Source of the DNA: Dickeya aquatica
GTDB lineage: Bacteria; Pseudomonadota; Gammaproteobacteria; Enterobacterales; Enterobacteriaceae
Length of the DNA: 64,000 nt
Direction of reading: 5' to 3'
Assembly: GCF_900095885.1 (NCBI RefSeq)
Contig: NZ_LT615367.1
Location: 2,852,001-2,916,000 of the forward strand
The first letter of the stretch is position 1. Each line of letters begins with the position of its first letter. Position numbers and translations under genes: made by a program. The notes below the pieces were generated by a model that saw only the letters and a program-made list of their open reading frames with translations, was not told the origin of the DNA and searched no databases. Below, one piece after another: positions 42,242 to 56,440 of the stretch.

Positions 42242-43663
42242 TCACGCAATGAGATTATATTTTTCAAGAAGATAATTTTTATATGCTGAGTAGTTATTTT
42301 CTGCGTCCTTGATGGTGGTGACTGCCCACATAAATGCCCCTTCTTGATGATTGATATCAAAGACAAGAGACGTATCAATCCGTGCAATATTTGTTGACTC
42401 TCCAACACCATCCAAAACAGCAGATAGTGCAACTTGATCCAAAAACCAGACAACATTGTTTTTCTTCAAATTATTCCATATAAAAAGGGCAACTTTTTTA
42501 ATAAACCGCCTGGACTCCTCACTACCATTAAGATAGACAAATCCAGCAATCGCTTTTTCCCAGAAAGGAGCACCTTCACTTTTGGTTAACGCTATATCGG
42601 AGGATACAAGTTTAGGCTCAACAAACCGCCAATTGTTTTTTATCAGAGAATCCGCATCAACAATTAGTAATGGCCCCTGAAATATCGATAAAAGATAATT
42701 TGCTGCGGTAAATCGCCTACACGCATAGTGAACATTAATACCCGATACATTCCCGATTGGCTCAAGAGTACAAGAGATATTTAACTCAGGCAGGGAGGCA
42801 TGTTTTATTTTTATATTTTCTATAGTCAACTCATCAGCATCATAGACGTGAAGGTGTACATTAAAACTATCACGATTAGACTCATATAAAGAATAGATGA
42901 GGGACACTGCATGTTGATGATAATATTTCACATCACAAGAAATCAGTATTGTAGGCTTGTCATTTTTTATTTCTCTCTTCAATAGCCACTGATAATGATC
43001 ATAACTAACATCGTCTTTTTTAGATATAAGTGAAGTGAAGTCGATATATGAATCAGGATAACCGCCACTCTTAAATATAGTAGTAACTACCATCAGCAAT
43101 GCTAGTGGATCTTCACCTATAAGATAAGAGTTAGCAGCCATCCTTTGTGCCAGTAACATTGCATACTGGTAATCTTCCTCAAGAATACAGGTGAGCAATA
43201 ATATCTTAAACACAACAGGCACATCCTGCAACACCTCTAGATTATTCTCAATCAAAGTAACAGCATGCTCTATAGCACCAATACGGAATAGTATCTGGAT
43301 AGACACTACTAAATATTCTAGATTCGGAGCTACATCCAGTACTTCCCCAAGATAACTAACAATGTTATCGATATATTCGCTCGGCAATCTTACCTGCTGT
43401 CCTTTCCATTTTTCATCCAGCGTCAGATTAGATAACGCAATAGCATTCAACAACAGCCTTAAAGCTTTATCCTGTTCTGGTGGTAAATTGCTTTGACTAA
43501 CCGATAATTTTTTATTCAAAGTGTAAATGTCACAACTTCTTTTGACGAAAATATCAACTATAATATCTTTTGATAATCCGCCAATATCACCAATAACCAA
43601 CTCACTACTAAACACATCTCGATAATATTGGTGAGCCGACTTAACATTGGAGTAATTTGACAT
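42242..43663 (-). CDS. Putative GT-A-fold glycosyltransferase of the flagellin island
   Basis: 473 residues. The N-terminal half (1-230) is helical and resembles a TPR-like or solenoid domain (LEYLVVSIQILFRIGAIEHAV, LLTCILEEDYQYAMLLAQR). The C-terminal half begins PTILISCDVKYYHQHAVSLIYSLYE and contains LLIVDADSLIKN, a DxD motif of nucleotide-sugar transferases, then GFVYLNGSEESRRF. I infer transfer of a sugar onto the flagellin glycan. The start at 43663 has GAGG 6 bases upstream. A terminator-like hairpin separates it from the genes before it, so it may have its own promoter. The gene is AT-rich. Confidence 0.7.
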   Translation of the reverse strand: MSNYSNVKSAHQYYRDVFSSELVIGDIGGLSKDIIVDIFVKRSCDIYTLNKKLSVSQSNLPPEQDKALRLLLNAIALSNLTLDEKWKGQQVRLPSEYIDNIVSYLGEVLDVAPNLEYLVVSIQILFRIGAIEHAVTLIENNLEVLQDVPVVFKILLLTCILEEDYQYAMLLAQRMAANSYLIGEDPLALLMVVTTIFKSGGYPDSYIDFTSLISKKDDVSYDHYQWLLKREIKNDKPTILISCDVKYYHQHAVSLIYSLYESNRDSFNVHLHVYDADELTIENIKIKHASLPELNISCTLEPIGNVSGINVHYACRRFTAANYLLSIFQGPLLIVDADSLIKNNWRFVEPKLVSSDIALTKSEGAPFWEKAIAGFVYLNGSEESRRFIKKVALFIWNNLKKNNVVWFLDQVALSAVLDGVGESTNIARIDTSLVFDINHQEGAFMWAVTTIKDAENNYSAYKNYLLEKYNLIA

Positions 43664-43751
43664 GAACAACCTCATTATTGATAAATGATTATAGCATTAG
43701 CGCAATATATCATTAGGATATTCGTTTTTTAAAACAGATAATTCTCTACAA

Positions 43752-43780
43752 TAAAAAAACCACTAATAAATTAATGGTGA
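43752..43780 (-). terminator. Intrinsic terminator inside the island
   Basis: On the minus strand ACCATTAA-TTTA-TTAGTGGT is followed by seven T residues, 34 bases after the luxC-like stop. It would end most transcripts of the upstream eleven-gene run before the glycosyltransferase. Confidence 0.7.
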
Positions 43781-43813
43781 GATTTTTAGAGAATTATGTA
43801 TTGACGTTCTTAA

Positions 43814-45013
43814 TTAAAAACCACGTGTCATTGAATAAACTAAATCATACCCATCCCATTTCATAGAAAAATCTAAGGTTTTTCCAATCGGAACGACTCT
43901 GTCAATACCAAGAGGTTTATAGTGCATCATGAAGTCATGAATAACTTCATTTCTGACACCTAATGTAGCTATCGTCTGACATCGCTCACCACATACTGGA
44001 TATATTTCAGAAATGTCATCAGCCATATACTCCATAAAGTAGCCACAGTTACCTGAATATGACATTGTGTTATTATCAAGATGACTCAGTTGAATTCTAA
44101 AAACAGTGTTATTATCATCAGATATTTTTTTCACTCCATCATGTGATGCACAAAGCTTATAAAAATCAGCTAATTTCCTGACTGCGGATACTGCATTGAG
44201 CTCGTATCTTTCATTAGCTAGAATTGAAAATTTTTCCCAAAATAAAGACATTGCAGTAGTCTTATTATTGCCAAGCCAGACAATAAGCTTAGGTGAAGTA
44301 CAGGCATTTTGGTCTGATAGAAGAGTGTCATTATAAAAATCAGAAGCAATCTTTTCTTTATTTTCAACAGCCAGGTATGATTCAGCATCAATAATACAGA
44401 TTGAATAACGATCTGAAAAAACGATATCCAGATTTCTCGGGTTTGCAGGTGAGGCCTGAAGCGTTGAAATAGTCAGGTCACCGCCCCATATTAATCTAGT
44501 TCTACAAATAGATGAAAAATAATCATTGATAATTTTATCGCGTGGATAGCGGAGAAGAATGATATAAGGAGATAAATCAGGGAAATCACTTAACGTTCGA
44601 TTAATTTCCTCACAAAGCAAATCAATTTGTGGGAATGCCTTTGATGGAACCCTGACAACGCTTGCATTTCCTGTTAATAATCCAGAAAATAAGGAGTATG
44701 CGAAATTCAATGCAACATTTGAGGGGGCGATATGAAATGCAACACCTCGACCTAGCCGATAACCTAAAGAAGGATATTCTTTATCTTTTATACCCAGAAT
44801 GGATGCCTTCCTACACCAAAATGCTAATGTAATAACATCAGGATGATCTTTTGCCTTTGTGTTTTTAAAAATATTTTTCGATAAAGAATCCAAAAAATCA
44901 ATAACTCTGCTTTCAAATGCAATCAAAGGCCTTGCTTCTGACAACTGTTCTATTAAGAGCTGGCTACCTACCAGAATAGTAATTCTCTCAAAATTATGAA
45001 GCATAGGTATCAC
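43814..45013 (-). CDS. LuxC-like acyl reductase
   Basis: 399-residue member of the LuxC/aldehyde dehydrogenase superfamily. FHIAPSNVALNFAYSLFSGLLTGNASVVRVPS matches the LuxC cofactor region, and the nucleophile Cys238 lies in SDQNACTSPKL. LuxC reduces activated acyl groups to aldehydes with NADPH. It overlaps the luxE-like gene by 20 bases; start is GTG (45013) with GAGG 5 bases upstream, or the ATG at 45004. No luciferase genes are present, so the aldehyde must serve biosynthesis, presumably of a flagellin glycan substituent. Confidence 0.85.
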   Translation of the reverse strand: MIPMLHNFERITILVGSQLLIEQLSEARPLIAFESRVIDFLDSLSKNIFKNTKAKDHPDVITLAFWCRKASILGIKDKEYPSLGYRLGRGVAFHIAPSNVALNFAYSLFSGLLTGNASVVRVPSKAFPQIDLLCEEINRTLSDFPDLSPYIILLRYPRDKIINDYFSSICRTRLIWGGDLTISTLQASPANPRNLDIVFSDRYSICIIDAESYLAVENKEKIASDFYNDTLLSDQNACTSPKLIVWLGNNKTTAMSLFWEKFSILANERYELNAVSAVRKLADFYKLCASHDGVKKISDDNNTVFRIQLSHLDNNTMSYSGNCGYFMEYMADDISEIYPVCGERCQTIATLGVRNEVIHDFMMHYKPLGIDRVVPIGKTLDFSMKWDGYDLVYSMTRGF

Positions 45014-46070
45014 TACACCCTCTTAATTCAGCGTTCTGGAACCGTCCCAAGACCGAAAAATACTTTCCCAGTCGCCCACAAGGACAGTCATCCTCACCTA
45101 AAACCACACCAACATCTTCAGTCAACAGTGAATGCCCTGGATATGATTCTGGAATCAAGGATAGAACCTGTATAATACCTGGACGCCCATTGGGAAGGAC
45201 TGAAAAATCTTTTGGATCTCGGATTATAATATCGGAGAAAACACTTGCATGGAGATGGCCGTGCTCGCATTGCATATATATACAGCCCGTTTGTTCGACC
45301 ATACCATAATAATCGAATGTCTGCTTGATTCCACAAGAATCATTTAATAGCCGAGAGAATTCTTTTTGAGATACGGCTTCAGATTGAAGTTTTTTCCATC
45401 CACCACCATGGATAAGAATAGCATTAGATAAGTCTATTTTTATATTTTTTTCTTTAAGGCTTTTATAAAAAAACTGCCAGACCATAAAAGTAAAACCAAA
45501 CAAGAGAACCTTTCTTCCTTTGTGCTTAGATAAGAAAGAAGAAACAGCCTCGATATCAATATTCATATGTTCATCAAGGCAAAAAATTTTATCCGATGCA
45601 AAAATAGAGAAACCCAAGATACCTGCACCGCGAGCAGAGAATAAATTTCTATCTTTCATCACTGTTGGTGTATCTATAACAATCAATGGAAGTCGGGATG
45701 TTCCAGTAAAATCACTAACAATCTTTACAAATGCTTTTTGCTGATTGCTCGCTGTGTCTTTATTTAAAAAAATTTTCGAAACCTGTTGTCCTGTAGTTCC
45801 TGATGATGTCATTGTTTTGATAATTTCATTTTTTTCGACACTATACAAATCTAGCTGCTTAAAAAGAGAAACAGGCAAAAAAGGAAAATCAGTAATTTTA
45901 TTTATTTTTTTAATATCAAACGAAATTCCATTCAACATCTTCTCATACGGCAAACATGAAGCTGCATGATATACAGTGAGATAACTCAAGCGTTCTATGA
46001 AGAGACTATTTTTTTCATTTTTATTTAAAGAGTATGGTGGAAGGGAGAATATATTATCGTAGCTAATCAT
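44994..46070 (-). CDS. LuxE-like acyl-protein synthetase
   Basis: 358-residue AMP-forming enzyme related to LuxE, which activates fatty acids and passes the acyl group to a cysteine for LuxC. The P-loop-like TSSGTTGQQVSKIF, the QTFDYYGMVEQTGC segment and a C-terminal Cys pair (DDCPCGRLGK) are visible. The ATG at 46068-46070 overlaps the previous stop (ATGATTAG), indicating translational coupling; a longer version would need an implausible extension into the upstream gene. LuxE and LuxC side by side form an acid-reductase pair. Confidence 0.85.
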   Translation of the reverse strand: MISYDNIFSLPPYSLNKNEKNSLFIERLSYLTVYHAASCLPYEKMLNGISFDIKKINKITDFPFLPVSLFKQLDLYSVEKNEIIKTMTSSGTTGQQVSKIFLNKDTASNQQKAFVKIVSDFTGTSRLPLIVIDTPTVMKDRNLFSARGAGILGFSIFASDKIFCLDEHMNIDIEAVSSFLSKHKGRKVLLFGFTFMVWQFFYKSLKEKNIKIDLSNAILIHGGGWKKLQSEAVSQKEFSRLLNDSCGIKQTFDYYGMVEQTGCIYMQCEHGHLHASVFSDIIIRDPKDFSVLPNGRPGIIQVLSLIPESYPGHSLLTEDVGVVLGEDDCPCGRLGKYFSVLGRFQNAELRGCSDTYAS

Positions 46071-47469
46071 AGTTGCAATCCAACTTTGAGTATAATGTTT
46101 TCCCTGCCTCATTTTTAGGTATATCAGAAATAACTTTAAAACTGAAGGCACTATGGTTTATTTTCATGCTATCTGATAGCATCTTTTTAATAGAATCGAT
46201 AAGCTCACAATCGACAATAAATATGGATATCTTATCATCAGTACCGCTACACGCACATTCTATACCAGAAAATCTTGATTTTATTAACCCTTCAACTTCA
46301 TCCAAATTAACTCGATTGCCAAACACCTTTAAAAAACGTTTTTTCCTTCCAACGATATAGTAGTAACCCTCTTCGTCTCTCTGAGCAACATCCCCTGTTT
46401 CAAGACGGTTATTTCTTTCATTACCTTTAGCCAGATCAAGCCGACATTCAGCATAACCCAAAGTAACATTTTCACCCCAATAGACCAACTCACCAACTGT
46501 ATTAGGTGTAGCTACTTCAATACCATTGTCATCAATAATAGAAAATTGACCACCGGGAATACTTTTCCCCATGCTACCAATTTTTTCTAAAGAAACTTCT
46601 GCCGGAAGATATCCCATACGAGAGGTAGCCTCTGCTGCACCATACATAACATAGAATCGCTTTCCTTTTTCTTTGGCATATTGAGCAAAATTTCTATGTA
46701 ATTCAGGTAACAACTTCCCTCCTGCCTGAGTCATTGTTTTAAGATCAGGCAAGTCCATATTAAAAAACCTTATTTTTTTCAACATCTCATATGTGTAAGG
46801 CACACCAGAAAAAGATGATGCTTTATATTCTTTGACAAAATTCCAGAAATCTTTCTGCATGACGCCTTTGTTAGTTAATAAAAGCATTGCACCTTTAATC
46901 AAATGGCTATTGATAATAGACAGCCCATAGACATAATGCATCGGCAAATTAACCAAAGCTCGCTCACCTTCATCAATATTCAAATATGAAGATATGCTAA
47001 GTGCATTACTGAAGATATTTTTATAACTTTGCCTGACGAGCTTAGGACTTCCTGTTGATCCTGATGTTGTAATCAGTAATGCAAGCTCATCATGGAGATG
47101 ACAATCAGGGCAATTAGTCTCAACTAATTCATAATCATGCAAGCGAAAGATAACCGTATACTTATCATTCGACCTGGAGACGGGTTGCCAGAAATAATTA
47201 GGTTGATATATCTCGATTAAATTTTCTAAGAAATCAGAATCGATATTTTTATCTATCAACAGAGGAACAACATGGTTCGATAAAAAAGTGACATAACCAA
47301 CAAGGCTACCAAAGGAATTCTCAGTAAAACATAAGACCAATGTTCCTTTTTTTATTTTCTTTGATAATGAATTTACACTATCAACCAATTCACCATAGGA
47401 CAGGCTATTGCCATTCTCATCAATTGCAACGAGATTTTCAGATGGATGTTTTTCTATATCAAGAAACAT
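46063..47469 (-). CDS. AMP-forming acyl/aryl ligase (ANL superfamily)
   Basis: 468 residues. The adenylate-forming motifs are LLITTSGSTGSPKLV (A3, about residue 132), YGAAEATSRM (A5), LETGDVAQRDEEGYYYIVGRKKRFLK (A7-A8) and the catalytic Lys in PKNEAGKTLYSKLD (A10). It should activate a carboxylic acid as an adenylate and load it on CoA or, more likely, the island ACP. It is relatively short for the family. The stop overlaps the luxE-like start, and the upstream transketolase stop is 2 bases away. Confidence 0.87.
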   Translation of the reverse strand: MFLDIEKHPSENLVAIDENGNSLSYGELVDSVNSLSKKIKKGTLVLCFTENSFGSLVGYVTFLSNHVVPLLIDKNIDSDFLENLIEIYQPNYFWQPVSRSNDKYTVIFRLHDYELVETNCPDCHLHDELALLITTSGSTGSPKLVRQSYKNIFSNALSISSYLNIDEGERALVNLPMHYVYGLSIINSHLIKGAMLLLTNKGVMQKDFWNFVKEYKASSFSGVPYTYEMLKKIRFFNMDLPDLKTMTQAGGKLLPELHRNFAQYAKEKGKRFYVMYGAAEATSRMGYLPAEVSLEKIGSMGKSIPGGQFSIIDDNGIEVATPNTVGELVYWGENVTLGYAECRLDLAKGNERNNRLETGDVAQRDEEGYYYIVGRKKRFLKVFGNRVNLDEVEGLIKSRFSGIECACSGTDDKISIFIVDCELIDSIKKMLSDSMKINHSAFSFKVISDIPKNEAGKTLYSKLDCNYD

Positions 47470-47471
47470 AA

Positions 47472-48440
47472 TTACTCACTTATGTTTTCCTTTATTTTTG
47501 TAACGATGTCAGACGCCGTCAATCCACTTATTGACAATAAATAATTATAATCTCCTGCATGAGGATATCCCTGGGGAATACCCATGATAAGTTGTCGAGG
47601 ACGGTTTACTTTATCTGATAGATACTCAGCAACCGCACTACCTAACCCACCAATAATACTATGCTCTTCGACCGTAACGATTAATTTTTTATCAAGGTTT
47701 TCTTCAAGAGTGTCAGTATCAAGGGGTTTTATTGTATGCATGTTTACAACTGAACACCTAATCCCATCATATTCTAAGGCCTCTGCGGCTTTAATAGATG
47801 GATAAACCATGCTTCCTGTCGCCACAATGCATACATCTGCCCCATCTCTCAGAGTTATAGCTTTACCTATCGAGAGCTCATAATCGGAGTTATACACTAT
47901 CGGAGCTCTCATATTTCCAGTGAGTCTGAGATATACAGGCCCTTGATACTGTAATGCCGCCTCTGTCATTTTTGCTGTTTCAACACAGTCAGCAGGAGAA
48001 AGTATCGTAATATTTGAAACTGCTCTTAGTACTGCTATATCTTCTATACCATGATGTGTTGCGCCAAACATTCCTGTCGCAACACCACTGGCAAGTCCAA
48101 CCAATTTTACATTTTCATTCATGTAGCCTAAATTATGGCGAACCTGCTCTCCAGCACGCATTGTCAAAAAATTCGCAAAAGATGTGACAAATGGAATAAA
48201 ACCGCCAGAAGCCAAGCCGGAGGCAACACCTATCATATTTTGCTCAGCAATTCCGGTATTAAAAAAACGATCAGGGTATGTACTACTAAAACGATCAAGT
48301 CCAGATGATTTACAGAGGTCGGCGGATAATGCTACCAGATTGGGGTATTGGTGAGCCAGCTCTAATAACACAATACCAAATGTTCCTCTGGAGCCTAGCA
48401 TTGACCATGAACGAATATTTGATGATTTAATATCTAGCAT
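47472..48440 (-). CDS. Transketolase-like C-terminal subunit
   Basis: 322-residue subunit with the pyrimidine-binding and C-terminal transketolase domains. The catalytic Glu66 lies in NTGIAEQNMIGVASGLA, where it activates thiamine diphosphate. Later segments (HGIEDIAVLRAV, VYLRLTGN, TVEEHSIIGGLGSAVAE) are typical of split transketolases and DXS-like proteins. Its ATG overlaps the stop of the N-terminal subunit by 7 bases. Together they should transfer a two-carbon ketol unit; the acceptor is unknown. Confidence 0.9.
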   Translation of the reverse strand: MLDIKSSNIRSWSMLGSRGTFGIVLLELAHQYPNLVALSADLCKSSGLDRFSSTYPDRFFNTGIAEQNMIGVASGLASGGFIPFVTSFANFLTMRAGEQVRHNLGYMNENVKLVGLASGVATGMFGATHHGIEDIAVLRAVSNITILSPADCVETAKMTEAALQYQGPVYLRLTGNMRAPIVYNSDYELSIGKAITLRDGADVCIVATGSMVYPSIKAAEALEYDGIRCSVVNMHTIKPLDTDTLEENLDKKLIVTVEEHSIIGGLGSAVAEYLSDKVNRPRQLIMGIPQGYPHAGDYNYLLSISGLTASDIVTKIKENISE

Positions 48441-49258
48441 GCTTTATTACCGTCTATTTCAGATAACGCTAACATGTGTTGCTCTTTAGATAATTTATTT
48501 CGATGAAATTCTTTATTGTTTTCCATAAAAGAAACTCCTTTACCTTTCACTGTGTTAGCTACGATAACTTTAGGCTTTCTATTATGAGGAATATTAAACG
48601 CTTCTATGAGTTCATCTATATTGTTACCATCACACTCAATTACGCACCATCCACATGCACGCCATAAAGCAGATAAATCAAGATTTATTATGTCGCGAGT
48701 CATCCCATCAGATTGCAAACCATTTTTATCCACAATAACAGTCAAAGAGTCCAAATGCTGCTGAGCAGCAAAAAAAGCGCCTTCCCAGATAGCCCCCTCG
48801 TTACACTCTCCATCCCCGACGAGAACATAACTATGCCAAGACTGCTTTTTTAAACGGTGGCTTAATGCCAAACCGATACCGAATGATAACCCCTGAGCTA
48901 AACTGCCACTCGAAAAGTCTATCCCTAACTCAGGACACTTCGTTGGGTGCACTTGCAAAACAGAACCATTTATTTCAAAAGAGTCAAGAGTCTCTTTACT
49001 GATTACATCAAACTCTTGTAAAGTAGCATAGAGTCCTAATGCAGCATGTCCTTTACTTAAAATAAATACATCTCGCTTTTTATCTATTATATTTGAAGCA
49101 TCATATCGCAGTACTGAACCATAAATTGTTGTCAGTATATCAACAATTGATAAAGCTGGTGAGATATGAACACCATCACTTGGTGCATGATGAGCGACCT
49201 GTAATATAGTCTTACGTATATTACGGGCTCGGTCAAATAGCATGGTTACATTATTCAT
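48434..49258 (-). CDS. Transketolase-like N-terminal subunit
   Basis: 274-residue thiamine-diphosphate-binding subunit. The ThDP/Mg motif runs from GDGECNEGAIWEG (148-160) to VDKNG (Asn179). HAALGLYATL and GSLAQGLSFGIGLAL are conserved transketolase blocks. Split two-gene transketolases are common in natural-product and sugar pathways and rare in enterobacterial core metabolism, where TktA is a single chain. It overlaps the SDR gene upstream by 4 bases (ATGA). Confidence 0.9.
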   Translation of the reverse strand: MNNVTMLFDRARNIRKTILQVAHHAPSDGVHISPALSIVDILTTIYGSVLRYDASNIIDKKRDVFILSKGHAALGLYATLQEFDVISKETLDSFEINGSVLQVHPTKCPELGIDFSSGSLAQGLSFGIGLALSHRLKKQSWHSYVLVGDGECNEGAIWEGAFFAAQQHLDSLTVIVDKNGLQSDGMTRDIINLDLSALWRACGWCVIECDGNNIDELIEAFNIPHNRKPKVIVANTVKGKGVSFMENNKEFHRNKLSKEQHMLALSEIDGNKAC

Positions 49259-50001
49259 GATTTTAAACCCCCATCAACACGAATAACCTGACCAGTAATA
49301 TAAGCAGATAAATCAGATGCAAGAAAAACAGCTGTATCAGCAATTTCCTTTGGATAACCTACCCTAAGAATATCTGTACTATTTATAGCACCTTCCAGAA
49401 TAACCGATGGTAATGTTGTTAACATGTCCGTGTCTGTCACACCTGGAGCAATGCTATTTACTCTTATCCCTGATTCTCCAAGCTCAGCAGCAATTGATTT
49501 AGTCATCGCTATTATTGCAGCTTTAGATGCACCATAAGCTGACTTCCCTGGATTTCCATCCTCGCCAGCTGTAGAAGAGATATTAATAATACTACCGTTT
49601 CTATGTCTGACCATTAATTTAGAGATATACTGAGTGAAAATAAAAACAGAGAAAAAATTCACTTCAAATTGATTTCTTAATGCATCTTCCGTCGTCATTT
49701 GGAATAGTGAATTTAATGTAACACCGGCATTATTTATCAAAGCATGAATAATTTTCTTCTCTGCCATTAATTTCTTTACTGCCAGTTTCATTCCTTCACG
49801 ATCGGTCATATCAAAATAGATGGGCCATATTTCGACCTGATAGCGGGATGCTATAGATTGGATCAGTGAGGCAAATTCAGGTGTCTCTTGTCTTGCATGA
49901 GCGTATATATTAGCGCCATTGGCAGCGAACGCTTCAAGCATCGCTTTCCCCATACCTCGAGCCGTTCCGGTAATGAGAACATTTTTCCCCGTCAACAACA
50001 T
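49255..50001 (-). CDS. Short-chain dehydrogenase (FabG-like), island copy 1
   Basis: 248-residue classical SDR. TGTARGMGKAM is the cofactor site, NNAG is intact, and the catalytic Ser, Tyr and Lys are in ISSTAGEDG and YGASKAA. The C-terminal TGQVIRVDGGLKS is typical. AGGTGG lies 5 bases before the ATG at 50001. It closely resembles the neighbouring SDR, indicating a tandem duplication. A role in reducing a 3-oxo or alpha-hydroxyketo acyl intermediate is inferred. Confidence 0.88.
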   Translation of the reverse strand: MLLTGKNVLITGTARGMGKAMLEAFAANGANIYAHARQETPEFASLIQSIASRYQVEIWPIYFDMTDREGMKLAVKKLMAEKKIIHALINNAGVTLNSLFQMTTEDALRNQFEVNFFSVFIFTQYISKLMVRHRNGSIINISSTAGEDGNPGKSAYGASKAAIIAMTKSIAAELGESGIRVNSIAPGVTDTDMLTTLPSVILEGAINSTDILRVGYPKEIADTAVFLASDLSAYITGQVIRVDGGLKS

Positions 50002-50013
50002 AATATCCACCTG

Positions 50014-50757
50014 TTATCCAATACCACCATCAACACGGATGACTTGTCCGGTGATATAGCTTGATGAATCCGATGCAAGATAAAGAATAGCATTAGCTAC
50101 TTCCTCTGGTAAGCCAATGCGATGCAGCTCGCATCGGTTTAATTGCCGGTCAAGAGCCTCTGTAGGTAAATCCTCAGTCATTCTGGTTTTAATAATACCA
50201 GGAGCAACAGCATTCACCCGTATACCGTGTTGTCCTAATTCAGTAGCCAACGTTTTTGTAGCTGCAATTATTGCAGCCTTTGATGATGAATAGGCAAGCT
50301 GCCCTGGATTACCATCAATAGCTGATATACTTGAAACATTTATAACGCTTCCCTTTTTATTTCTCACCATTAATTTTGTTATATATTGAGTGAGATACAT
50401 TTGGGAAAAAAAATTAATTGAGAATGTATTTCTCAATTGTTCCATAGTCATCATATGAAAATAGGCATCAATATTAGCGCCTGCTATATTTGCCAATATA
50501 TCTATGGATTTCTTGGTTTTTTGTATAAAATTTGCACCTTGCTTTATTGCATCATAGTCCATCAAATCAAAATATACTGGTATTATTTCAACATCATATT
50601 TTTTTTTAAGCTCCTCAATGTGTGAAATAAAATTATCATCAGTATACTGGCAGCAAGCAAAAACATTCGCACCCGCTGCGGCGAATGCATCTAACGTTGC
50701 CAAACCAATACCTTGCAAACAACCTGTAACTACAGCATTTTTTCCTGACAGCAGCAT
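50014..50757 (-). CDS. Short-chain dehydrogenase (FabG-like), island copy 2
   Basis: 247-residue classical SDR with TGCLQGIGLATLDAF and the triad in VSSISAIDGNPG and YSSSKAA. The NNAG motif is replaced by NIAGAN, which is unusual but tolerated in some SDRs. AGGAG lies 6 bases before the ATG. It begins 9 bases after the ACP stop, so the ACP is its probable substrate carrier. A different substrate from its paralogue is likely after duplication. Confidence 0.87.
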   Translation of the reverse strand: MLLSGKNAVVTGCLQGIGLATLDAFAAAGANVFACCQYTDDNFISHIEELKKKYDVEIIPVYFDLMDYDAIKQGANFIQKTKKSIDILANIAGANIDAYFHMMTMEQLRNTFSINFFSQMYLTQYITKLMVRNKKGSVINVSSISAIDGNPGQLAYSSSKAAIIAATKTLATELGQHGIRVNAVAPGIIKTRMTEDLPTEALDRQLNRCELHRIGLPEEVANAILYLASDSSSYITGQVIRVDGGIG

Positions 50758-50766
50758 GAATGACTC

Positions 50767-51003
50767 CTAAATTACCACGTCATACTTACTCAGAATTTCT
50801 TTTCCTTTTTCATAAGAAGAGAAATCAATAATATCTTCTGTATCCATCATAATATCAAATGCTTCTTCTAAAGCTGATATCATTGACATATGCCCAACAG
50901 AGTCCCATGATGCAGTATCCTGATATTTATATCCTGGTAATATATCTTCAGAAACCTCAAATGTTTGAATGAAAACTTGATTGTATTTTTCTAAATTACT
51001 CAT
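50767..51003 (-). CDS. Dedicated acyl carrier protein of the island
   Basis: 78 residues with the phosphopantetheine site WDSVGHMSMI (Ser35), quite unlike AcpP (DSLDTVE). The acidic helical pattern (ISALEEAFDIMMDTEDI) is typical of ACPs from secondary pathways. It likely carries the acyl group made by the ligase, SDRs and transketolase, keeping it apart from fatty acid synthesis. AcpP-type sequence constraints are absent. Confidence 0.88.
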   Translation of the reverse strand: MSNLEKYNQVFIQTFEVSEDILPGYKYQDTASWDSVGHMSMISALEEAFDIMMDTEDIIDFSSYEKGKEILSKYDVVI

Positions 51004-51044
51004 TAGTTAACCCTTTAGTAATAGATTATAACTTACAATAACAT

Positions 51045-51069
51045 GGCTATTATTAAATATAATAGCGCC
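51045..51069. other. AT-rich hairpin between the NeuD-like and ACP genes
   Basis: GGCTATTAT and ATAATAGCGCC pair as an imperfect hairpin (one bulge) in the 93-base gap, the only long gap in the operon between 43.8 and 52.9 kb. TATAAT occurs on the minus strand at 51025-51030, so an internal promoter is possible, but no good -35 is visible. Confidence 0.4.
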
Positions 51070-51096
51070 GTGAAACTGTTAATTAGCTAAAAAAAA

Positions 51097-51753
51097 TCAA
51101 TTGAAGACTTTTTTGCTATCATTCTTTCGTAAAATTCGTGCAGGATTGCCGAGTGCGATAACCTCATCCGGTATATCGTTAAATACTGCGGCCCCCATAC
51201 CTACAATGCTCATATTTCCAATTGACGTTTTTTCTTTTACGACTGCACCCATCCCTAGAAACGATTGCTCACCAACATGACACCCACCCGCAAGGCTAAC
51301 ATATGTGGATATTATTGAGTGATTTCCTATATAAGAATCGTGCCCTATACTAGAGTTAGGCTGAAAAAAAACATTTTTGCCAATGGATGTATCACAGGAT
51401 ATATAAACACCCATGTTAATCACACAACCTTCACTTATTTTTGTACATTTTGGCACAATTACTGAAGGGTGAATCAGCGTTGCTAACATTATCCCATTCG
51501 ACTCAATTCTATCGGCAAAACATGCTCGCAAAGAAGGTTCACCGACAGCAATGACCACTTCAATATCACTGAGGTCCTGCCCATTGAGTAGTGACTCAAA
51601 TGATACAACACAATGTTTTTTTACTATCCTGTCAAAGTTTAGATCATCTATGAAGAAAATATCATTCCATCGAGAATCTAGTGAGTTTATATATTCGGCC
51701 AGAACTAATACTTCTCTCCCCAACCCACCTGACCCATATATTCCAAGTTTCAT
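51097..51753 (-). CDS. NeuD/PglD/VioB-like acyltransferase
   Basis: 218-residue protein. A Rossmann-like N-terminus (MKLGIYGSGGLGREVLVLAEY) binds the nucleotide sugar, and the C-terminal left-handed beta-helix has hexapeptide repeats (VINMGVYISCDTSIGKNV, IGHDSYIGN, VVKEKTSIGNMSIVGMGA). The His in SSIGHDSYIG corresponds to the catalytic base of PglD. Placed directly after the VioA-like gene (8-base gap), it most likely N-acylates the 4-amino sugar. The acyl donor could be an ACP thioester rather than acetyl-CoA, given the operon. Confidence 0.85.
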   Translation of the reverse strand: MKLGIYGSGGLGREVLVLAEYINSLDSRWNDIFFIDDLNFDRIVKKHCVVSFESLLNGQDLSDIEVVIAVGEPSLRACFADRIESNGIMLATLIHPSVIVPKCTKISEGCVINMGVYISCDTSIGKNVFFQPNSSIGHDSYIGNHSIISTYVSLAGGCHVGEQSFLGMGAVVKEKTSIGNMSIVGMGAAVFNDIPDEVIALGNPARILRKNDSKKVFN

Positions 51754-51761
51754 ACAGCCCT

Positions 51762-52886
51762 CTATTTTATATATTTATTGATGATATCTCTGATAGCGAG
51801 AATGACCCTTTCTTGCTCATGAGAGGATAGGTCAGGATATATGGGAAGGCATAATACACGACTAGATATATCAGTTGCCACTGGCAGGTTGTCGCTATGC
51901 GAACTATCTAAACCACGGTACATTGGAAAAGAACTAATTAAAGGGAAAAAGTATCTTCTGGAATAAATATTTCTCTCTTTGAGCTCATTGTAAATGGCAT
52001 CCCTCATTCCATCGGGGCACTCTTCAAGAAAAATAGGGAAATAGGCATAATTCCAATCAATGCCATCTATATTTTTAAGCATTCTGATCTGCGGTATATT
52101 AGAAAAGGAACTAATGTACTTCTCATATATATGCATTCTGGCATCAAGTGCATTGTTAATGTATTTTAATTGAAGCAATCCAAATGCAGCCTGTACTTCA
52201 TTCATCTTTGAATTTATACCCGTAGCCACTACAGTTGTTTCATCTGCAAATCCAAAATTCTTCAAATAATCGATTCGCTGCTTCATTTTTTTATCATGAC
52301 AAATTATTGCGCCACCTTCTATTGTATTGAAGACTTTGGTCGCATGAAAACTGAGTATTGATAAATCACCATAGTTAAGAATACTGACATCTTGTTTTTT
52401 CACACCAAACGCATGAGCCGCGTCATAAATAACTTTAATACCATATACATCAGAAATCCTCTGGATCTCATCAACATCACATGGAATACCATAGCAATGT
52501 ACAGGTAATATTGCTGATGTCAGTGGTGTAATAGCTGCCTCTATTTTGGTTGGATCGAGATTACAACTAACAGGATCGATATCAACAAATACAGGCTTTA
52601 ATCCATTCCATAATAAAGAATGCGATGTTGCCACAAAAGAGTAAGGCGTTGTAATAACTTCACCAGTAATTCTTAGTGCCTGCAGTGCCGTTAACAACGC
52701 AAGCGTACCATTACTGAATAAGCTCAGATACTTTACACCGAGGTAATCAGCCAATTCCTTTTCTAATGCTTCATGGAATGGGCCGCCATTTGTAATGTGT
52801 TGATTACTCCATATTTTTTCAAGATAAGGTGTAAACTCTGCCAACGGCGGAAGCAACGGTCTTGTAACAAAAATATTATCTTTCAT
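51762..52886 (-). CDS. VioA-like sugar aminotransferase (DegT/DnrJ family)
   Basis: 374-residue PLP enzyme. Lys184 in SFHATKVFNTIEGG is the internal aldimine lysine, and Asp155 in IYDAAHAFG contacts the pyridine nitrogen. The start FVTRPLLPPLAEFTPYLEKIW and sequence throughout resemble VioA, which converts dTDP-4-keto-6-deoxyglucose to dTDP-viosamine (4-amino-4,6-dideoxyglucose). The upstream dTDP-sugar genes rmlA/rmlB are not in the window and must be elsewhere. A 119-base gap separates it from the OGT fusion. Confidence 0.88.
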   Translation of the reverse strand: MKDNIFVTRPLLPPLAEFTPYLEKIWSNQHITNGGPFHEALEKELADYLGVKYLSLFSNGTLALLTALQALRITGEVITTPYSFVATSHSLLWNGLKPVFVDIDPVSCNLDPTKIEAAITPLTSAILPVHCYGIPCDVDEIQRISDVYGIKVIYDAAHAFGVKKQDVSILNYGDLSILSFHATKVFNTIEGGAIICHDKKMKQRIDYLKNFGFADETTVVATGINSKMNEVQAAFGLLQLKYINNALDARMHIYEKYISSFSNIPQIRMLKNIDGIDWNYAYFPIFLEECPDGMRDAIYNELKERNIYSRRYFFPLISSFPMYRGLDSSHSDNLPVATDISSRVLCLPIYPDLSSHEQERVILAIRDIINKYIK

Positions 52887-53005
52887 ACATCCCCTTGTTA
52901 CAATTTTTCATTAACTTTTAGACTCTGGCAAAGCTACCGCCCTTGGCTATAGCTACCAATGTGCTACTCAATAACTCACTGCTACATACATGTGATACTT
53001 TTGCT

Positions 53006-56000
53006 CTATTTATCGACAGAAAACGTAATTGGTTTTCCAGCGCTACAGTAAATATCCCACGCTTTCCTAAGTATCTTCTCAAAATATAACGAAGGTTTAG
53101 TACCACTCATTATGGACTTCGTTATCTTTGTACGCAAATTTTCACGGACATAGGCAAGTCGTGAGTGATCCTTACTGAACGCGATAGCTTTTTCTTTATA
53201 CTCTTGCCGGGAATGAGCAACAAAGTCGTCTAATTCAAGCCCTCCTGTTGACAAAAAGCCTTGCAGCGTTGCTAACGTATCACCCACCATGGTCAATGTT
53301 GGTACCCCCATCCATAGCGCGTGATTGGTTGTTGTTCCTCCGGTATAAGGGAATGTATCCAGCAAAATATCCACTTCATGATGGCTGTGAAGATATGCCC
53401 CCATTCCTGTCTTGAGACGGAAAATTAATCGACTTTTATCGACACCCCAATTATTCATTTTCTGGGTAATTGAATTAATGAGTTCGTTTCCGGGCATATA
53501 TCCAAGTAATAACTTAGAGTCAGGGACTTCACATAAAATTTCCGCCCACAACTTCAACATATAATCATTAATTTTTTGTGGGCGATTAAATGTCCCAAAT
53601 GTTATATATCCGTTAGATAGTGCTGGTAGTTTATTAACTTCCGGGCTTCCCTTTGCCGGCTCAAACATCTTCACGAATGGCATGAAAATTAATTTTTCAG
53701 TAAATTGCTCTTGTAAACTTTCTGGCAAACTCACGTTTGCATTCACAATATAATAATCAAGAGCAGACATTCCTGTCGTTCCTGGATAACCTATCCAGCT
53801 CATCTGGATGGGCGCTGGTTTAAATGCAAGCACAGGAAGCCGGTTGTAGGCGGTATGACCAGACAGATCAATAAGGATGTCAATTTCATCTTTATTGATG
53901 AGTGCAGCCAATTCCAGATCACCCATCTTATCAACTTCATACCACCCCGCAGTCGTCTTTTTCAGACTATCTGCTTTCTCATCGTTACGTTGAAAACTGG
54001 AATAGGCATAAATAGAGAAGGTGTTGCGATCAAGTGAATTCCAGACAGGCTCCAGAAAATTTGTCACCGGGTGACCACCTAAGTCACCGGAAATAAAACC
54101 GATGCGCAGTGGGCGTTGAGAGTCTTTATTATCAGTATAAGTAAATCGGTGGCGGTAACCCGCAGCAACATCTTCGACACGTTTACCAAAAACGAGGTGC
54201 TCTTGAAACAATTCTGCGGGCGTCACAGTAACATCATGCGACAACCCCAACAATAAGTTACTATGTAAATGAAACGCACTAGGCATCAACTCAATTGTTT
54301 TACGGTGATATTTGATAGAGTCCTCTCTCCCCAAATTATGGCAGACCATGCCCATATGGCTAATAAAATTCGGGTTTTCTGGGTCAATTTGTAACGCCTT
54401 CTCCATACAAATAAATGCAGAATCAAAGTTATTGGTAACGTTTAATAGTACCGCCAACGTATCCCATGCAAAGCCTTTACGTTTGTCACATCGTAATACT
54501 TTTCTGGTTAGTGCTATCCCCGAATGTAATTCACTCTTTCTCCAGAAACATATAGCCATATCAATATAGAAATCCCAGCTAAATGGCATCAGTGCAATTG
54601 CTCTGGTAATAATGCTTAATGCGCCATCAAAATCCCCCGAGCGGACATAAGTATTAACAAAGGGGTACCATGCCCAAAGATTATCGCGATAGGTATTCAT
54701 GATAGCTTCTGCCTGAGCTCTGGCTTTAGTAAAATTTCCTATAGCCATCAGTTTATCTATTTCCTCGTACACCTTGGGGCTTAACGCATTTTTATCTTGC
54801 CGACTCTTTTTATGTGTTACTGATTTCTCTGGCTCAATAAAGCCACCAGCATTGCTTTCACTGACATATACCACCAGCGACTGGATATAAATAGCAACCT
54901 CAGCGGTATCAGCCTTGACAATAGCTTCCTGCAAATAGTCTCGCCATGCGCGCGGCGTTCCCCATACGACACCTTTGTTACGCAGCCCCCACAGTTGGCT
55001 ATAGAACGCTTTATCTTTATCTTTGATTGATGAAGGCAGTTCCTGCAAAAATTTTCTCTCAGCGCTATCGAGTGAAACCGGCTCATGCCAAAAATTAAAT
55101 GCCAGCCCGGTAGTTGCAAGCGCTGGTAAGGCGGTGAGCGTTTTGTAGCAACTGTTACGGTAAGGACAATTCCCTATACGGACGTAAAGACCACTGATAC
55201 CTTTTACAAACAGATTTTTTAGCGCCTGCAATACATCATGCCGGTGATTTTCATTTTCCTTTTCCGGCTGCTGAGTATTAAAAATTAGCTGTTCCAGGCT
55301 AAGACTAGCAGGCCATGCTTCTCCTAAGGCATCAAGAATACTTAATACTATATAATGCTCGGTGCTGATATTCTCACCAGTACCAGAGGTATGGGCATTC
55401 AACGTCTTATCGTCTAATTTGACGCGCTGAAAATTTCCTGCCCAGTTAAAGTCGATGAGTTTTGAGAGGTCTGGCTCAGGCAGAATCTCTCCTGCTCTTT
55501 CTTGTGGTGCTAGTATGCTGAATCGCTGAGAGCGGTTAACGGCAAAATCCAGGTATTGCTGACGTAAGTAAGTGGTATTTTTAGGGCAGACTGTCTCATG
55601 CAAATGTGAAACCTGGTCGCCATAATGGCTTGCCATCTCGGTATACGCACGAACATCTCCGACATAAGCAAATCCAGTTTTAGTAATCTGCGCGTAGAAA
55701 TCAACGAAATAGCAAGGCTGATTCAATCCTTGCAAATAATGCAGGGAAAAATCCACATCAGATTGTTTTTCAGCCTGCTCAATAAAGGCCTTCAGGGCTA
55801 TATTCTGGGCATTATCAGGAGAGGTACCTAAAGATAGATAGGTCAGCATTGCACGAGCACTGGCTTGCGCTGTCTTCTCATCGTCAGCAAGGCTACTGTG
55901 CAGTTGGATGGCATCACGCAAAATTTCGCCGGCCTTCCACCCTGGGTAAGTGTTGTAGCTATAACAAACGATACCTTCGGTAGTCAGGTGATCATGGCAG

Positions 56001-56440
56001 AACTGCAACAAGGCATCTCGGGTCTCACCACCAATCAGGCTAAACAATCCGTGGATAACAATGTAGTCAAATTTGCCTGGGTCACAGGCCAGTAACGACT
56101 CAAGATCTAACGCAAATAATGCAATGTTATCAAGTTCAAGCTGTTTTATTAAGGCACAGCCTTTTTCAATTTGATTGGCATCAAGATCGATCCCGATAGA
56201 TTGTGACTGTGGATTTGCCAGCGCGAAGGGTAATAAATTACCGCCATCCTTACACCCAATCTCAAGAACGCGTGCTGTTTCCGGTGCAGCGGATTTAATG
56301 CCGTAAAGATGTGCTGTCGCTTGCAGATGAAAAGGAGCGGTATGAGGAATCGGTGAGGATATTGAACTTAATAATGTTTCACCCGTATCGTCACCCAGAT
56401 CAGTGCTGTTCGCTAAAGGTTGTGTATCTGGCATGGTCAC
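53006..56440 (-). CDS. Methyltransferase-TPR-OGT (SPINDLY-type) fusion protein
   Basis: 1144-residue multidomain protein. Residues about 40-180 are a class I methyltransferase (SAM motif VLEIGCKDGGN at 58-68). About 210-310 resembles the methyltransferase regulatory domain of PKMT-type protein lysine methyltransferases, and 330-520 a PKMT-like C-terminal domain. TPR-like repeats occupy about 575-770. The C-terminal 370 residues are a family 41 glycosyltransferase, with GDLGGHPVTNF, LIDLSGHTAYNRLP, IGYPGTTG, FNRPQKIND and DTFPYTGGTTTNHALWMGVP. I infer O-glycosylation of flagellin Ser/Thr, plus methylation of protein or glycan. The start is GTG with AAGGA 8 bases upstream. GC is higher than in the rest of the island. 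Confidence 0.88.
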   Translation of the reverse strand: MTMPDTQPLANSTDLGDDTGETLLSSISSPIPHTAPFHLQATAHLYGIKSAAPETARVLEIGCKDGGNLLPFALANPQSQSIGIDLDANQIEKGCALIKQLELDNIALFALDLESLLACDPGKFDYIVIHGLFSLIGGETRDALLQFCHDHLTTEGIVCYSYNTYPGWKAGEILRDAIQLHSSLADDEKTAQASARAMLTYLSLGTSPDNAQNIALKAFIEQAEKQSDVDFSLHYLQGLNQPCYFVDFYAQITKTGFAYVGDVRAYTEMASHYGDQVSHLHETVCPKNTTYLRQQYLDFAVNRSQRFSILAPQERAGEILPEPDLSKLIDFNWAGNFQRVKLDDKTLNAHTSGTGENISTEHYIVLSILDALGEAWPASLSLEQLIFNTQQPEKENENHRHDVLQALKNLFVKGISGLYVRIGNCPYRNSCYKTLTALPALATTGLAFNFWHEPVSLDSAERKFLQELPSSIKDKDKAFYSQLWGLRNKGVVWGTPRAWRDYLQEAIVKADTAEVAIYIQSLVVYVSESNAGGFIEPEKSVTHKKSRQDKNALSPKVYEEIDKLMAIGNFTKARAQAEAIMNTYRDNLWAWYPFVNTYVRSGDFDGALSIITRAIALMPFSWDFYIDMAICFWRKSELHSGIALTRKVLRCDKRKGFAWDTLAVLLNVTNNFDSAFICMEKALQIDPENPNFISHMGMVCHNLGREDSIKYHRKTIELMPSAFHLHSNLLLGLSHDVTVTPAELFQEHLVFGKRVEDVAAGYRHRFTYTDNKDSQRPLRIGFISGDLGGHPVTNFLEPVWNSLDRNTFSIYAYSSFQRNDEKADSLKKTTAGWYEVDKMGDLELAALINKDEIDILIDLSGHTAYNRLPVLAFKPAPIQMSWIGYPGTTGMSALDYYIVNANVSLPESLQEQFTEKLIFMPFVKMFEPAKGSPEVNKLPALSNGYITFGTFNRPQKINDYMLKLWAEILCEVPDSKLLLGYMPGNELINSITQKMNNWGVDKSRLIFRLKTGMGAYLHSHHEVDILLDTFPYTGGTTTNHALWMGVPTLTMVGDTLATLQGFLSTGGLELDDFVAHSRQEYKEKAIAFSKDHSRLAYVRENLRTKITKSIMSGTKPSLYFEKILRKAWDIYCSAGKPITFSVDK

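What the first reader, a model, noticed from the sequence alone, without database searches (positions are those of the whole stretch)
42242..56440. Flagellin-modification island combining acid-reductase, split transketolase, ACP and amino-sugar genes
Between fliA and fliC, twelve same-strand genes encode an OGT-type transferase, VioA-like aminotransferase, NeuD/VioB-like acyltransferase, ACP, two SDRs, split transketolase, ANL ligase, LuxE, LuxC and a GT-A-like transferase. Seen: domains, order, and tight overlaps from 46 to 50 kb. Established: VioA/VioB make and acylate viosamine; flagellin glycosylation islands in this locus exist in Dickeya and, in related form, in Pseudomonas. Inference: the middle genes build a custom acyl group, carried on the ACP, that decorates the amino sugar before transfer to FliC. 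The chemistry of this central block appears undefined.
Basis: partly seen in the sequence, partly recalled or inferred. Interest (0 to 1): 0.8.

Follow-up and report, generated by a model that had tools for sequence, protein, structure and literature searches.

The report
Flagellin island with aldehyde-route acyl genes
Twelve genes beside the flagellin gene look like a pathway that builds a small, water-loving acid group by way of an aldehyde, perhaps lengthened by a retargeted transketolase, and hangs it on a sugar attached to the bacterial flagellum; the gene set was already published as "fatty acid" genes, but this chemistry would be new.

Summary
In detail: twelve minus-strand genes lie between fliA and fliC. 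The gene list is not new: the same cluster is published for Dickeya zeae, and related islands in Enterobacteriaceae, the middle genes read as fatty-acid or "liposugar" genes. My evidence points elsewhere. A cassette ACP-ANL-LuxE-LuxC recurs in loci of seven phyla with its catalytic residues kept. A homologous core sits in an Aeromonas-type island; one Aeromonas strain of that type has a 376 Da flagellin sugar, which fits a C4H6O3 (dihydroxybutanoyl) group, not a fatty acid. Vibrio genomes carry ACP, ligase, Fe-alcohol dehydrogenase and a LuxE-LuxC fusion, the gene kinds proposed for tetronate in V. cholerae O1. The window adds a split transketolase: catalytic and most donor residues are kept, but acceptor Asp469 and His461 are absent in all 38 module copies examined, while 10 of 10 ordinary split transketolases from the same genomes keep Asp469. 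I propose: acid to aldehyde (LuxE/LuxC), C2 addition (transketolase), reduction (SDR), loading (ligase/ACP), N-acylation of a 4-amino sugar (NeuD), transfer to FliC (GT41). Every reaction is inferred; none was assayed. New variant of a known kind.

The parts
53006..56440 (-). Methyltransferase + TPR + GT41 (OGT-type) protein, 1144 aa; predicted to put the first sugar on FliC Ser/Thr
   Evidence: Pfam Glyco_transf_41, Methyltransf_12, MethyTransf_Reg; an OGT-type gene of the D. dadantii fliA-fliC island lowers FliC mass when disrupted (PMC6637903, passages)
51762..52886 (-). DegT/VioA-like NDP-4-keto-6-deoxysugar aminotransferase
   Evidence: PF01041 329 bits; best NCBIfam TIGR04427 287 bits, below its 650 cut-off; PDB matches include 2po3, QdtB, perosamine synthases
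51097..51753 (-). NeuD/PglD/VioB-type hexapeptide N-acyltransferase, predicted acyl-ACP user
   Evidence: TIGR03570 173.4 bits, over cut-off; PDB matches include perosamine N-acetyltransferase 4ea7 and VioB 7txp
50767..51003 (-). Specialised acyl carrier protein, 78 aa, Ser35 attachment site
   Evidence: 55-79% identical in the 33 relatives aligned; Ser 67/67; profile match to GmACP3 2lml, E 1.1e-5; ACP fold model
50014..50757 (-). SDR 1 (FabG-like), predicted ketone/aldehyde reductase
   Evidence: adh_short_C2; TIGR01830 222 bits, below cut-off 298
49255..50010 (-). SDR 2 (FabG-like)
   Evidence: adh_short_C2; the two SDRs cross-match at 48-49% identity in the second species' island
48434..49258 (-). 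TktN: thiamine-diphosphate half of a split transketolase
   Evidence: PF00456; nearest solved 6yak; His26, 66, 261 kept in 36, 35, 36 of 36 and His100 in 24 of 36 module copies; the window has all four
47472..48440 (-). TktC: pyrimidine + C-terminal half; Glu411 and His473 kept, Asp469 and His461 replaced (Phe, Ala)
   Evidence: PF02779, PF02780; nearest solved 6yaj; residues
46063..47469 (-). ANL adenylate-forming ligase, predicted to load the acid on the ACP
   Evidence: PF00501; Lys457 70/70 and Glu280 70/70 in aligned relatives
44994..46151 (-). LuxE-type acyl-protein synthetase (true start probably 46070)
   Evidence: PF04443 208 bits; matches LuxE chain 7xc6_E through the C-terminal GCS; Cys379 82/82
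43814..45013 (-). LuxC-type acyl reductase, predicted to release an aldehyde (true start probably 45004)
   Evidence: PF05893 67 bits; Cys238 79/79
42242..43675 (-). Helical domain + GT-A glycosyltransferase, predicted to add the second sugar
56650..57492 (-). fliC, flagellin, presumed acceptor
   Evidence: Flagellin_N/C
41151..41873 (-). fliA, sigma-28, island border
   Evidence: NF005413 350 bits, over cut-off

Best explanation
The island glycosylates flagellin with a 4-amino-4,6-dideoxyhexose carrying a custom short hydroxylated acyl group made through an aldehyde. Inferred order: LuxE adenylates one carboxyl of a small (probably di-)carboxylic acid, the best guess being malate, and LuxC reduces it to the semialdehyde. 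The split transketolase adds a two-carbon ketol unit to that aldehyde, which has no alpha-hydroxyl and no phosphate. One or both SDRs reduce the new ketone. The ANL ligase loads the remaining carboxyl on the dedicated ACP. The NeuD-type transferase moves the acyl group to the amino group that VioA put on the nucleotide sugar. The GT41 protein puts the sugar on FliC Ser/Thr and the GT-A protein adds a second residue. If malate is the start, the acyl group is a 3-deoxyhexonyl (C6H10O5, +162.05 Da, isobaric with a hexose) and the acylated sugar residue is 307.13 Da. Found here by comparison: gene content, conservation, catalytic residues, loss of acceptor residues, interchange of carboligases. 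Inferred: every reaction, the substrate, the order and the link to FliC.
For: Core constancy: in 80 loci chosen by LuxC similarity, LuxE is found in 80, ANL in 75 and ACP in 67. Catalytic residues in aligned copies: LuxC Cys 79/79, LuxE Cys 82/82, ANL Lys 70/70, ACP Ser 67/67. LuxE and LuxC form one reading frame in 6 of the 80 loci and in four Vibrio-genus loci (825-827 aa) beside ACP, ANL and a 374-375 aa gene that is Fe-ADH in L176, suggesting one acid-to-aldehyde unit; two acid-activating enzymes (LuxE and ANL) suit two different carboxyls. Transketolase: in 38 module TktC, Glu411 38/38 and His473 36/38 but Asp469 0/38 and His461 0/38; 10 ordinary split transketolases from the same genomes keep Asp469 10/10 and His461 9/10; an Arg at or near position 520 (10/10 controls) and Arg91 (9/10) are gone in all but at most one module copy. 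Engineered E. coli transketolase changes at 385, 469 and 520 shift acceptors to non-phosphorylated, non-polar aldehydes (PMC5073344). Transketolase travels with its own LuxE-LuxC pair in L010, L042, L054, L059, L063, L072. It is exchanged for an acetolactate-synthase-type enzyme: both in 1, TPP only 14, Tkt only 39, neither 26 of 80 loci, Fisher p 3e-4. An Aeromonas-type island has a homologous core (L151: ACP 45%, SDR 43%, ANL 35%, LuxE 47%, LuxC 28%); in A. piscicola AH-3, a strain of that island group, the linking sugar is 376.14 Da; pseudaminic acid + acetyl + C4H6O3 = 376.148, and the distal unknown is 102 Da.
Against: No biochemistry. The 80 loci were selected by LuxC and are related, so the Fisher test is not corrected for kinship, and the presence of LuxE/LuxC beside Tkt is partly by construction. 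The window's TktC keeps Arg358 and Ser385, part of the phosphate site, so a phosphorylated donor is not excluded. The genome's other split enzyme (L084), outside the module, keeps Asp469 but also lacks His461 and aligns a gap at 520, so those two losses alone are not diagnostic. The Carboxydothermus split transketolase takes bulky non-phosphorylated aldehydes although it keeps the usual residues, so their loss is not needed for that. Only 30 of 80 loci have a NeuD-type gene. A thioesterase in 19 of 80 loci, in 18 of them between ANL and LuxE, would suit the opposite flow, ACP to free acid to aldehyde. 376.14 Da fits other make-ups (O-methylglyceroyl, or two C3H4O2 groups), and A. hydrophila AH-1, which the authors give as a single-sugar strain (islands without the LuxC genes), has a 403 Da sugar, so odd masses arise without this module. 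Two SDRs are unexplained. No Fe-ADH is in the window's island.
Confidence: 0.45

Rival explanations
1. Reverse, lux-like flow: the ANL ligase loads an acid on the ACP, it is tailored there and released, LuxE/LuxC reduce it to a free aldehyde, and the transketolase turns the aldehyde into a hydroxyketone that becomes the final group without ever being an amide.
For: Gene order ACP-ANL-(thioesterase)-LuxE-LuxC with a thioesterase gene in 19 of 80 loci resembles a LuxD-LuxE-LuxC channel; FabH/FabZ genes are present in some loci.
Against: Leaves the NeuD-type transferase beside the ACP without a role, gives no route to attach a hydroxyketone to a sugar, and does not explain a C4H6O3 acyl in Aeromonas. 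None of the window's twelve proteins matched a thioesterase family.
Confidence: 0.2
2. Fatty-acid or liposugar reading of the literature: the genes make a fatty acyl or fatty aldehyde that makes the flagellin glycan lipid-like.
For: Domain names; proposed in PMC4875605 (section 9), PMC7575072 and PMC7874193. The SDRs match PF13561, described as enoyl-ACP reductase.
Against: No ketosynthase or dehydratase family among the twelve proteins. LuxC scores 28.7 against a 750 cut-off for the long-chain equivalog and LuxE 87.5 against 550. The Aeromonas sugar mass leaves room only for a C4-size polar group.
Confidence: 0.07
3. The transketolase is an ordinary paralogue serving sugar-phosphate supply (pentoses, higher-carbon sugars) for the glycan, unrelated to the acyl group.
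For: Annotated as 'sugar biosynthetic' in PMC7575072; catalytic and most donor-site residues are kept; Arg358 and Ser385 are kept in the window.
Against: Acceptor Asp469 and His461 are absent in the 38 module copies aligned but kept in 10/10 and 9/10 ordinary split enzymes; the genome has its own full-length TktA.
Confidence: 0.06
4. The island decorates another surface glycan (LPS or exopolysaccharide) and sits beside fliC only by site-specific insertion.
For: The core also lies in loci without a flagellar gene found in the fetched stretch: 70 of 80; L154 looks like an exopolysaccharide locus (by eye).
Against: An OGT-type gene in the same island site glycosylates flagellin in D. dadantii (PMC6637903); the fliA-fliC islands are reported in all 44 Dickeya surveyed (PMC4875605); none of the twelve proteins matched a flippase or polymerase family.
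Confidence: 0.08

Closest known systems
Dickeya zeae EC1/EC2/MS1 fliA-fliC cluster (PMC7575072, passages)
   Different: Read there as fatty-acid and sugar genes; the gene called fkbM there occupies the place of what is here a GT-A protein by model; no chemistry of the middle block in the passages seen
[quoted passage not shown] cholerae O1, VC0248-VC0252 (PMC3441752, passages; Morona 1995, title only)
   Same: ACP, AMP-ligase (WbeL 471 aa), LuxC-type reductase and acyltransferase acylating a 4-amino-4,6-dideoxyhexose (gene assignments recalled; such a set without the named acyltransferase seen here in Vibrio-genus loci L175-L178)
   Different: Window has SDRs instead of Fe-ADH, separate LuxE and LuxC, and an added split transketolase; V. 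cholerae sequences were not compared
Aeromonas polar-flagellum glycosylation island, Group II (PMC7874193)
   Same: ACP-SDR-ANL-LuxE-LuxC in a flagellin glycosylation island; homologous by sequence in L151/L152
   Different: Acts on a pseudaminic-acid derivative, no transketolase, PseH-type GNAT beside the ACP
Enterobacterial flagellin glycosylation islands (PMC4875605)
   Same: Site, GT41 with methyltransferase region, DegT, NeuD, ACP, LuxE, LuxC, CaiC, FabG
   Different: A survey; the word transketolase does not occur in the held main text
GmACP3 of Geobacter metallireducens (PDB 2lml)
   Same: Best profile match of the ACP among solved structures (E 1.1e-5); its paper's title proposes a role in LPS biosynthesis (title seen)
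   Different: Paper not held; its operon was not compared
Carboxydothermus hydrogenoformans split transketolase (PDB 6yaj/6yak)
   Same: Two-chain transketolase, best solved relative of both halves
   Different: Keeps His461 and Asp469 equivalents (alignment); gene context not examined

Membership tests
Enterobacterial flagellin glycosylation island | Lies between fliA and fliC | tested here: met
Enterobacterial flagellin glycosylation island | GT41 glycosyltransferase with methyltransferase region | tested here: met
Enterobacterial flagellin glycosylation island | Flagellin actually modified | not testable with these tools
   needs mass spectrometry
Tetronate pathway (V. cholerae O1 type) | ACP + ANL ligase + LuxE/LuxC reductase | tested here: met
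Tetronate pathway (V. cholerae O1 type) | Fe-containing alcohol dehydrogenase reducing the semialdehyde (recalled) | tested here: not met
   no PF00465 among the twelve proteins; two SDRs instead. It is present in L176, so the window's cluster is not filed as a member
Tetronate pathway (V. cholerae O1 type) | Product is 3-deoxy-tetronyl amide | not testable with these tools
   needs NMR or mass spectrometry
Transketolase (EC 2.2.1.1) | Catalytic Glu411 and donor/ThDP His26, His66, His261, His473 | tested here: met
   the window has all
Transketolase (EC 2.2.1.1) | Sugar-phosphate acceptor site (His461, Asp469, Arg520) | tested here: not met
   window Ala, Phe and an alignment gap; 0/38 for the first two in module copies. 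Arg358 and Ser385 are kept in the window
Bacterial luminescence fatty-acid reductase (LuxC/LuxE/LuxD) | NCBIfam equivalog cut-offs for LuxC and LuxE | tested here: not met
   28.7 against 750 and 87.5 against 550 bits
NeuD/PglB/VioB sugar N-acyltransferase | TIGR03570 cut-off | tested here: met
   173.4 against 160.8; the acyl donor was not tested
VioA (dTDP-4-keto-6-deoxyglucose aminotransferase) | Equivalog-level match | tested here: inconclusive
   TIGR04427 287.5, cut-off 650; DegT family clear
Acyl carrier protein | Phosphopantetheine Ser in a four-helix ACP fold | tested here: met
   for the window's ACP Pfam PP-binding stays below its cut-off (14.9 against 20.8) and no Foldseek match reaches E 0.001
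Pseudomonas viosamine/3-hydroxybutyryl flagellin islands | 3-oxoacyl-ACP synthase III building 3-hydroxybutyryl (recalled) | tested here: not met
   no ketosynthase family among the twelve proteins

The most novel reading that the evidence does not exclude
The ACP-ANL-LuxE-LuxC cassette is a general acid-to-aldehyde machine for decorating surface sugars, moved between at least seven phyla. It takes interchangeable thiamine enzymes that lengthen the aldehyde: a split transketolase whose acceptor pocket was rebuilt in nature at positions where protein engineers rebuilt the E. coli enzyme, or an acetolactate-synthase type. In the window it makes a 3-deoxyaldonic-acid amide on a flagellin amino sugar, isobaric with a hexose, so that such groups would pass for a hexose in mass spectra.
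Probability: 0.3. Interest if true: 0.75.

Novelty: new variant of a known kind. Interest (0 to 1): 0.6.

Why it matters
Three published papers read these genes as fatty-acid genes giving a lipid-like flagellin glycan. If the aldehyde route is right, the group is small and polar; the same cassette could explain an unusual acyl group in Aeromonas flagellin and point to unknown ones in gut Clostridia; transketolase would join the glycan toolbox as a carbon-carbon bond maker; and a +162 increment on a bacterial amino sugar could no longer be taken as a hexose. The claim can be tested with a handful of purified proteins and flagellin mass spectra.

Tried and rejected
Rejected: ordinary transketolase paralogue (acceptor residues). 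Fatty-acid synthesis (no ketosynthase or dehydratase family in the island; equivalog scores). Flagellum-specific module (10 of 80 loci with a flagellar gene in the fetched stretch; only this window's genes were the queries and the flanks are at most 10 kb, so this undercounts). Shewanella MR-1 sfm as the same system: it shares gene kinds NeuB, TPP enzyme and SDR with the alternative loci, but no LuxE or LuxC is among its five genes (passages).

D. dadantii FliC masses (PMC6637903) were divided by possible site numbers in thought and not used, since that strain's six-gene island lacks the module.

One search listed LuxC in 76 loci; the other four were LuxE-LuxC frames labelled LuxE, and with them LuxC is in 80. 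TktC frames with at least 85% coverage (38) and TktN frames (36) were aligned; loci with any match number 40 and 39. For the acceptor control, of 30 fetched loci 6 are module copies (from loci already searched as module loci), 10 I took as ordinary split transketolases, 3 a third type, 4 E1-beta-like, 7 DXS-like by motif, size and identity; that sorting is mine. The gene labels for FabZ, TPP, NeuB, thioesterase, FabH, MBL and LDH in the 80 loci come from one Pfam-scanned representative each.
Full report

What was already known. The same gene kinds in the same order are published for D. zeae strains (PMC7575072, passages read), and ACP, LuxE, LuxC, CaiC and FabG genes in flagellin islands are counted for 71-80 Enterobacteriaceae strains (PMC4875605, passages and section 9). 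Both suggest fatty acid or a liposugar component. In D. dadantii, whose six-gene island lacks the middle block, mutation of either glycosyltransferase lowers FliC mass (32170 Da in the wild type, 31034 and 28890 in the mutants; PMC6637903, passages). Searches of the held library for papers joining transketolase, LuxE and flagellin modification or glycan found none.

A cassette in seven phyla. The LuxC search scored 7,998 candidates and 6,909 passed E 0.001. The 80 best named loci include many Clostridia at 41-51% identity. In these 80, LuxE is found in 80, ANL in 75, ACP in 67, TktC in 40, TktN in 39, VioA-like in 42 and NeuD-like in 30; LuxC is there by construction (80 with fused frames). 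LuxC rows of the tree carry seven phylum labels, with Bacteroidota, Spirochaetota and Elusimicrobiota rows among Bacillota rows (quick tree only, 73 rows). The catalytic Cys of LuxC (79/79), Cys of LuxE (82/82), Lys of ANL (70/70) and Ser of the ACP (67/67) are kept in the aligned copies. The ACP is 55-79% identical to the window's in the 33 relatives aligned, yet the window's own stays below the Pfam cut-off. Ten of the 80 loci show flagellar genes in the fetched stretch: nine with fliA, one with fliD and fliS. So the cassette does not look tied to flagella.

What varies. Upstream of the cassette lies SDR-TktN-TktC, or FabZ with an acetolactate-synthase-type TPP enzyme and a NeuB-type gene, or SDRs alone, with mixed cases. 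Tkt and the TPP enzyme occur together in 1 of 80 loci, TPP alone in 14, Tkt alone in 39, neither in 26 (Fisher p 2.9e-4; 8e-5 in the 70 loci of at least 11 kb; not corrected for kinship). In six loci (L010, L042, L054, L059, L063, L072) the transketolase has a LuxE-LuxC pair of its own besides the main cassette. In six loci (L037, L042, L043, L057, L059, L081) LuxE and LuxC of the main cassette are one reading frame of 763-805 aa. This is the pattern expected if LuxE and LuxC are one unit that makes an aldehyde and a thiamine enzyme uses it.

The transketolase. Numbering follows the genome's own TktA, whose motifs sit at the E. coli positions (E. coli positions recalled, 385, 469, 520, 91, 26, 261 also named in PMC5073344). 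In 38 module TktC, Glu411 is kept in 38 and His473 in 36, but Asp469 in none (Leu 18, Phe 12, Ser 6, Tyr 1, Gln 1) and His461 in none. In 36 module TktN, His26 and His261 are kept in 36, His66 in 35 and His100 in 24. Ten split transketolases from the same genomes outside the module keep Asp469 in 10 and His461 in 9, while the six module copies among the 30 loci of that search keep neither. The comparison also shows an Arg near position 520 (10/10 controls), Arg91 (9/10) and the Gly25 and Pro27 that flank His26 (10/10, 9/10) gone in all but at most one module copy. Engineered S385Y/D469T/R520Q E. coli transketolase was walked from phosphorylated to non-polar aldehydes (PMC5073344, abstract start and passages). 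Against the reading: the window keeps Arg358 and Ser385; the genome's other split enzyme (L084) keeps Asp469 but lacks His461 and shows a gap at 520 as well; and the Carboxydothermus enzyme takes bulky aldehydes with the usual residues (PMC7661550, passages). The donor stays open.

What the core makes. That is the layout and GT length published for Aeromonas Group II (PMC7874193, passages and section 15). A. piscicola AH-3, a Group II strain, links its glycan through a 376.14 Da pseudaminic-acid derivative and ends it with an unknown 102 Da moiety; A. caviae Sch3 has plain Pse5Ac7Ac (PMC9290775, passages), 316.127 by my arithmetic. 376.14 less (Pse + acetyl) is 102.02, and C4H6O3 gives 376.148. 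A dihydroxybutanoyl group fits; O-methylglyceroyl fits equally, and a C3H4NO3 increment was within the tolerance too. Strain AH-1, given by the authors as a single-sugar strain, has 403 Da (PMC4691044, passages), so unusual masses are not unique to the module.

The tetronate parallel. V. [quoted passage not shown] five genes are assigned to it by putative function and deletion of wbeL (471 aa) removes the O antigen (PMC3441752, passages). The assignment of those genes as ACP, ligase, alcohol dehydrogenase, LuxC-type reductase and acyltransferase, and malate as possible start, are recalled. In Vibrio-genus genomes 19 of 196 have a LuxE relative at E 1e-15; four of them carry ACP, ANL of 472-479 aa, a 374-375 aa gene that is Fe-alcohol dehydrogenase in L176, and an 825-827 aa LuxE-LuxC fusion (L175-L178; Pfam run on L176 only). 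The next gene there (355 aa in L176) has no family, so an acyltransferase was not shown. The window's cluster has the same logic without the Fe-ADH, so I do not file it as a member; it works like one with SDRs and a transketolase added.

Mechanism, and how sure. Malic semialdehyde (aldehyde at C4) and succinic semialdehyde have no hydroxyl next to the aldehyde, which suits the loss of Asp469. Transfer of a C2 ketol unit and one reduction gives a 3-deoxyhexonyl group from malate (+162.0528, the same formula as a hexose residue; 307.127 with the amino sugar) or a trihydroxyhexanoyl group from succinate (291.132). I hold the amide-acyl aldehyde route at 0.45, the lux-like reverse flow at 0.2. The substrate guess is weaker than the route. 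That the island acts on FliC rests on position and on the D. dadantii counterpart.

Noticed in passing
L010, L042, L054, L059, L063, L072: A second Tkt-LuxE-LuxC block, with a more diverged LuxE/LuxC, beside or opposite the ANL-LuxE-LuxC cassette
   Followed up: partly
L037, L042, L043, L057, L059, L081: LuxE and LuxC in one reading frame of 763-805 aa in Bacillota loci, apart from the Vibrio fusions
   Followed up: partly
L175-L178 (Vibrio-genus genomes): LuxE-LuxC fusions of 825-827 aa with ACP, ANL and Fe-ADH; in L175 and L178 NeuB- and NeuA-type genes are near: tetronate-type operons
   Followed up: partly
L002, L013, L025, L030, L041, L045, L046, L051, L074, L179: FabZ-TPP-NeuB trio with the LuxE/LuxC cassette; the NeuB-type enzyme may add phosphoenolpyruvate to an aldehyde
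   Followed up: no
L053: Island beside fliA of a Symbiopectobacterium with several frames split into pieces (TPP, NeuB, LuxE), apparently decaying
   Followed up: no
L180:15548-17464: Second genome of the genus has two fliC-like stretches beside the same island
   Followed up: no
L097, L098, L100: A third type of split transketolase-like C half in Enterobacteria with Asn at 469 and Asp at 461, outside the module
   Followed up: no
window 35334-36143 and 36171-36995: Two ORFs that look like IS3-type transposase parts (by eye, not searched), 4-6 kb beyond fliA
   Followed up: no
L151:6175-6711: PseH-like GNAT directly before the ACP scores 46.5 against the PseH cut-off 93.1: perhaps an acyl-ACP user
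   Followed up: no
L011:3031-3792 and 11 more loci: Unknown protein of about 250 aa (representative without Pfam match) in 12 loci, in five of them directly before an SDR-Tkt block
   Followed up: no
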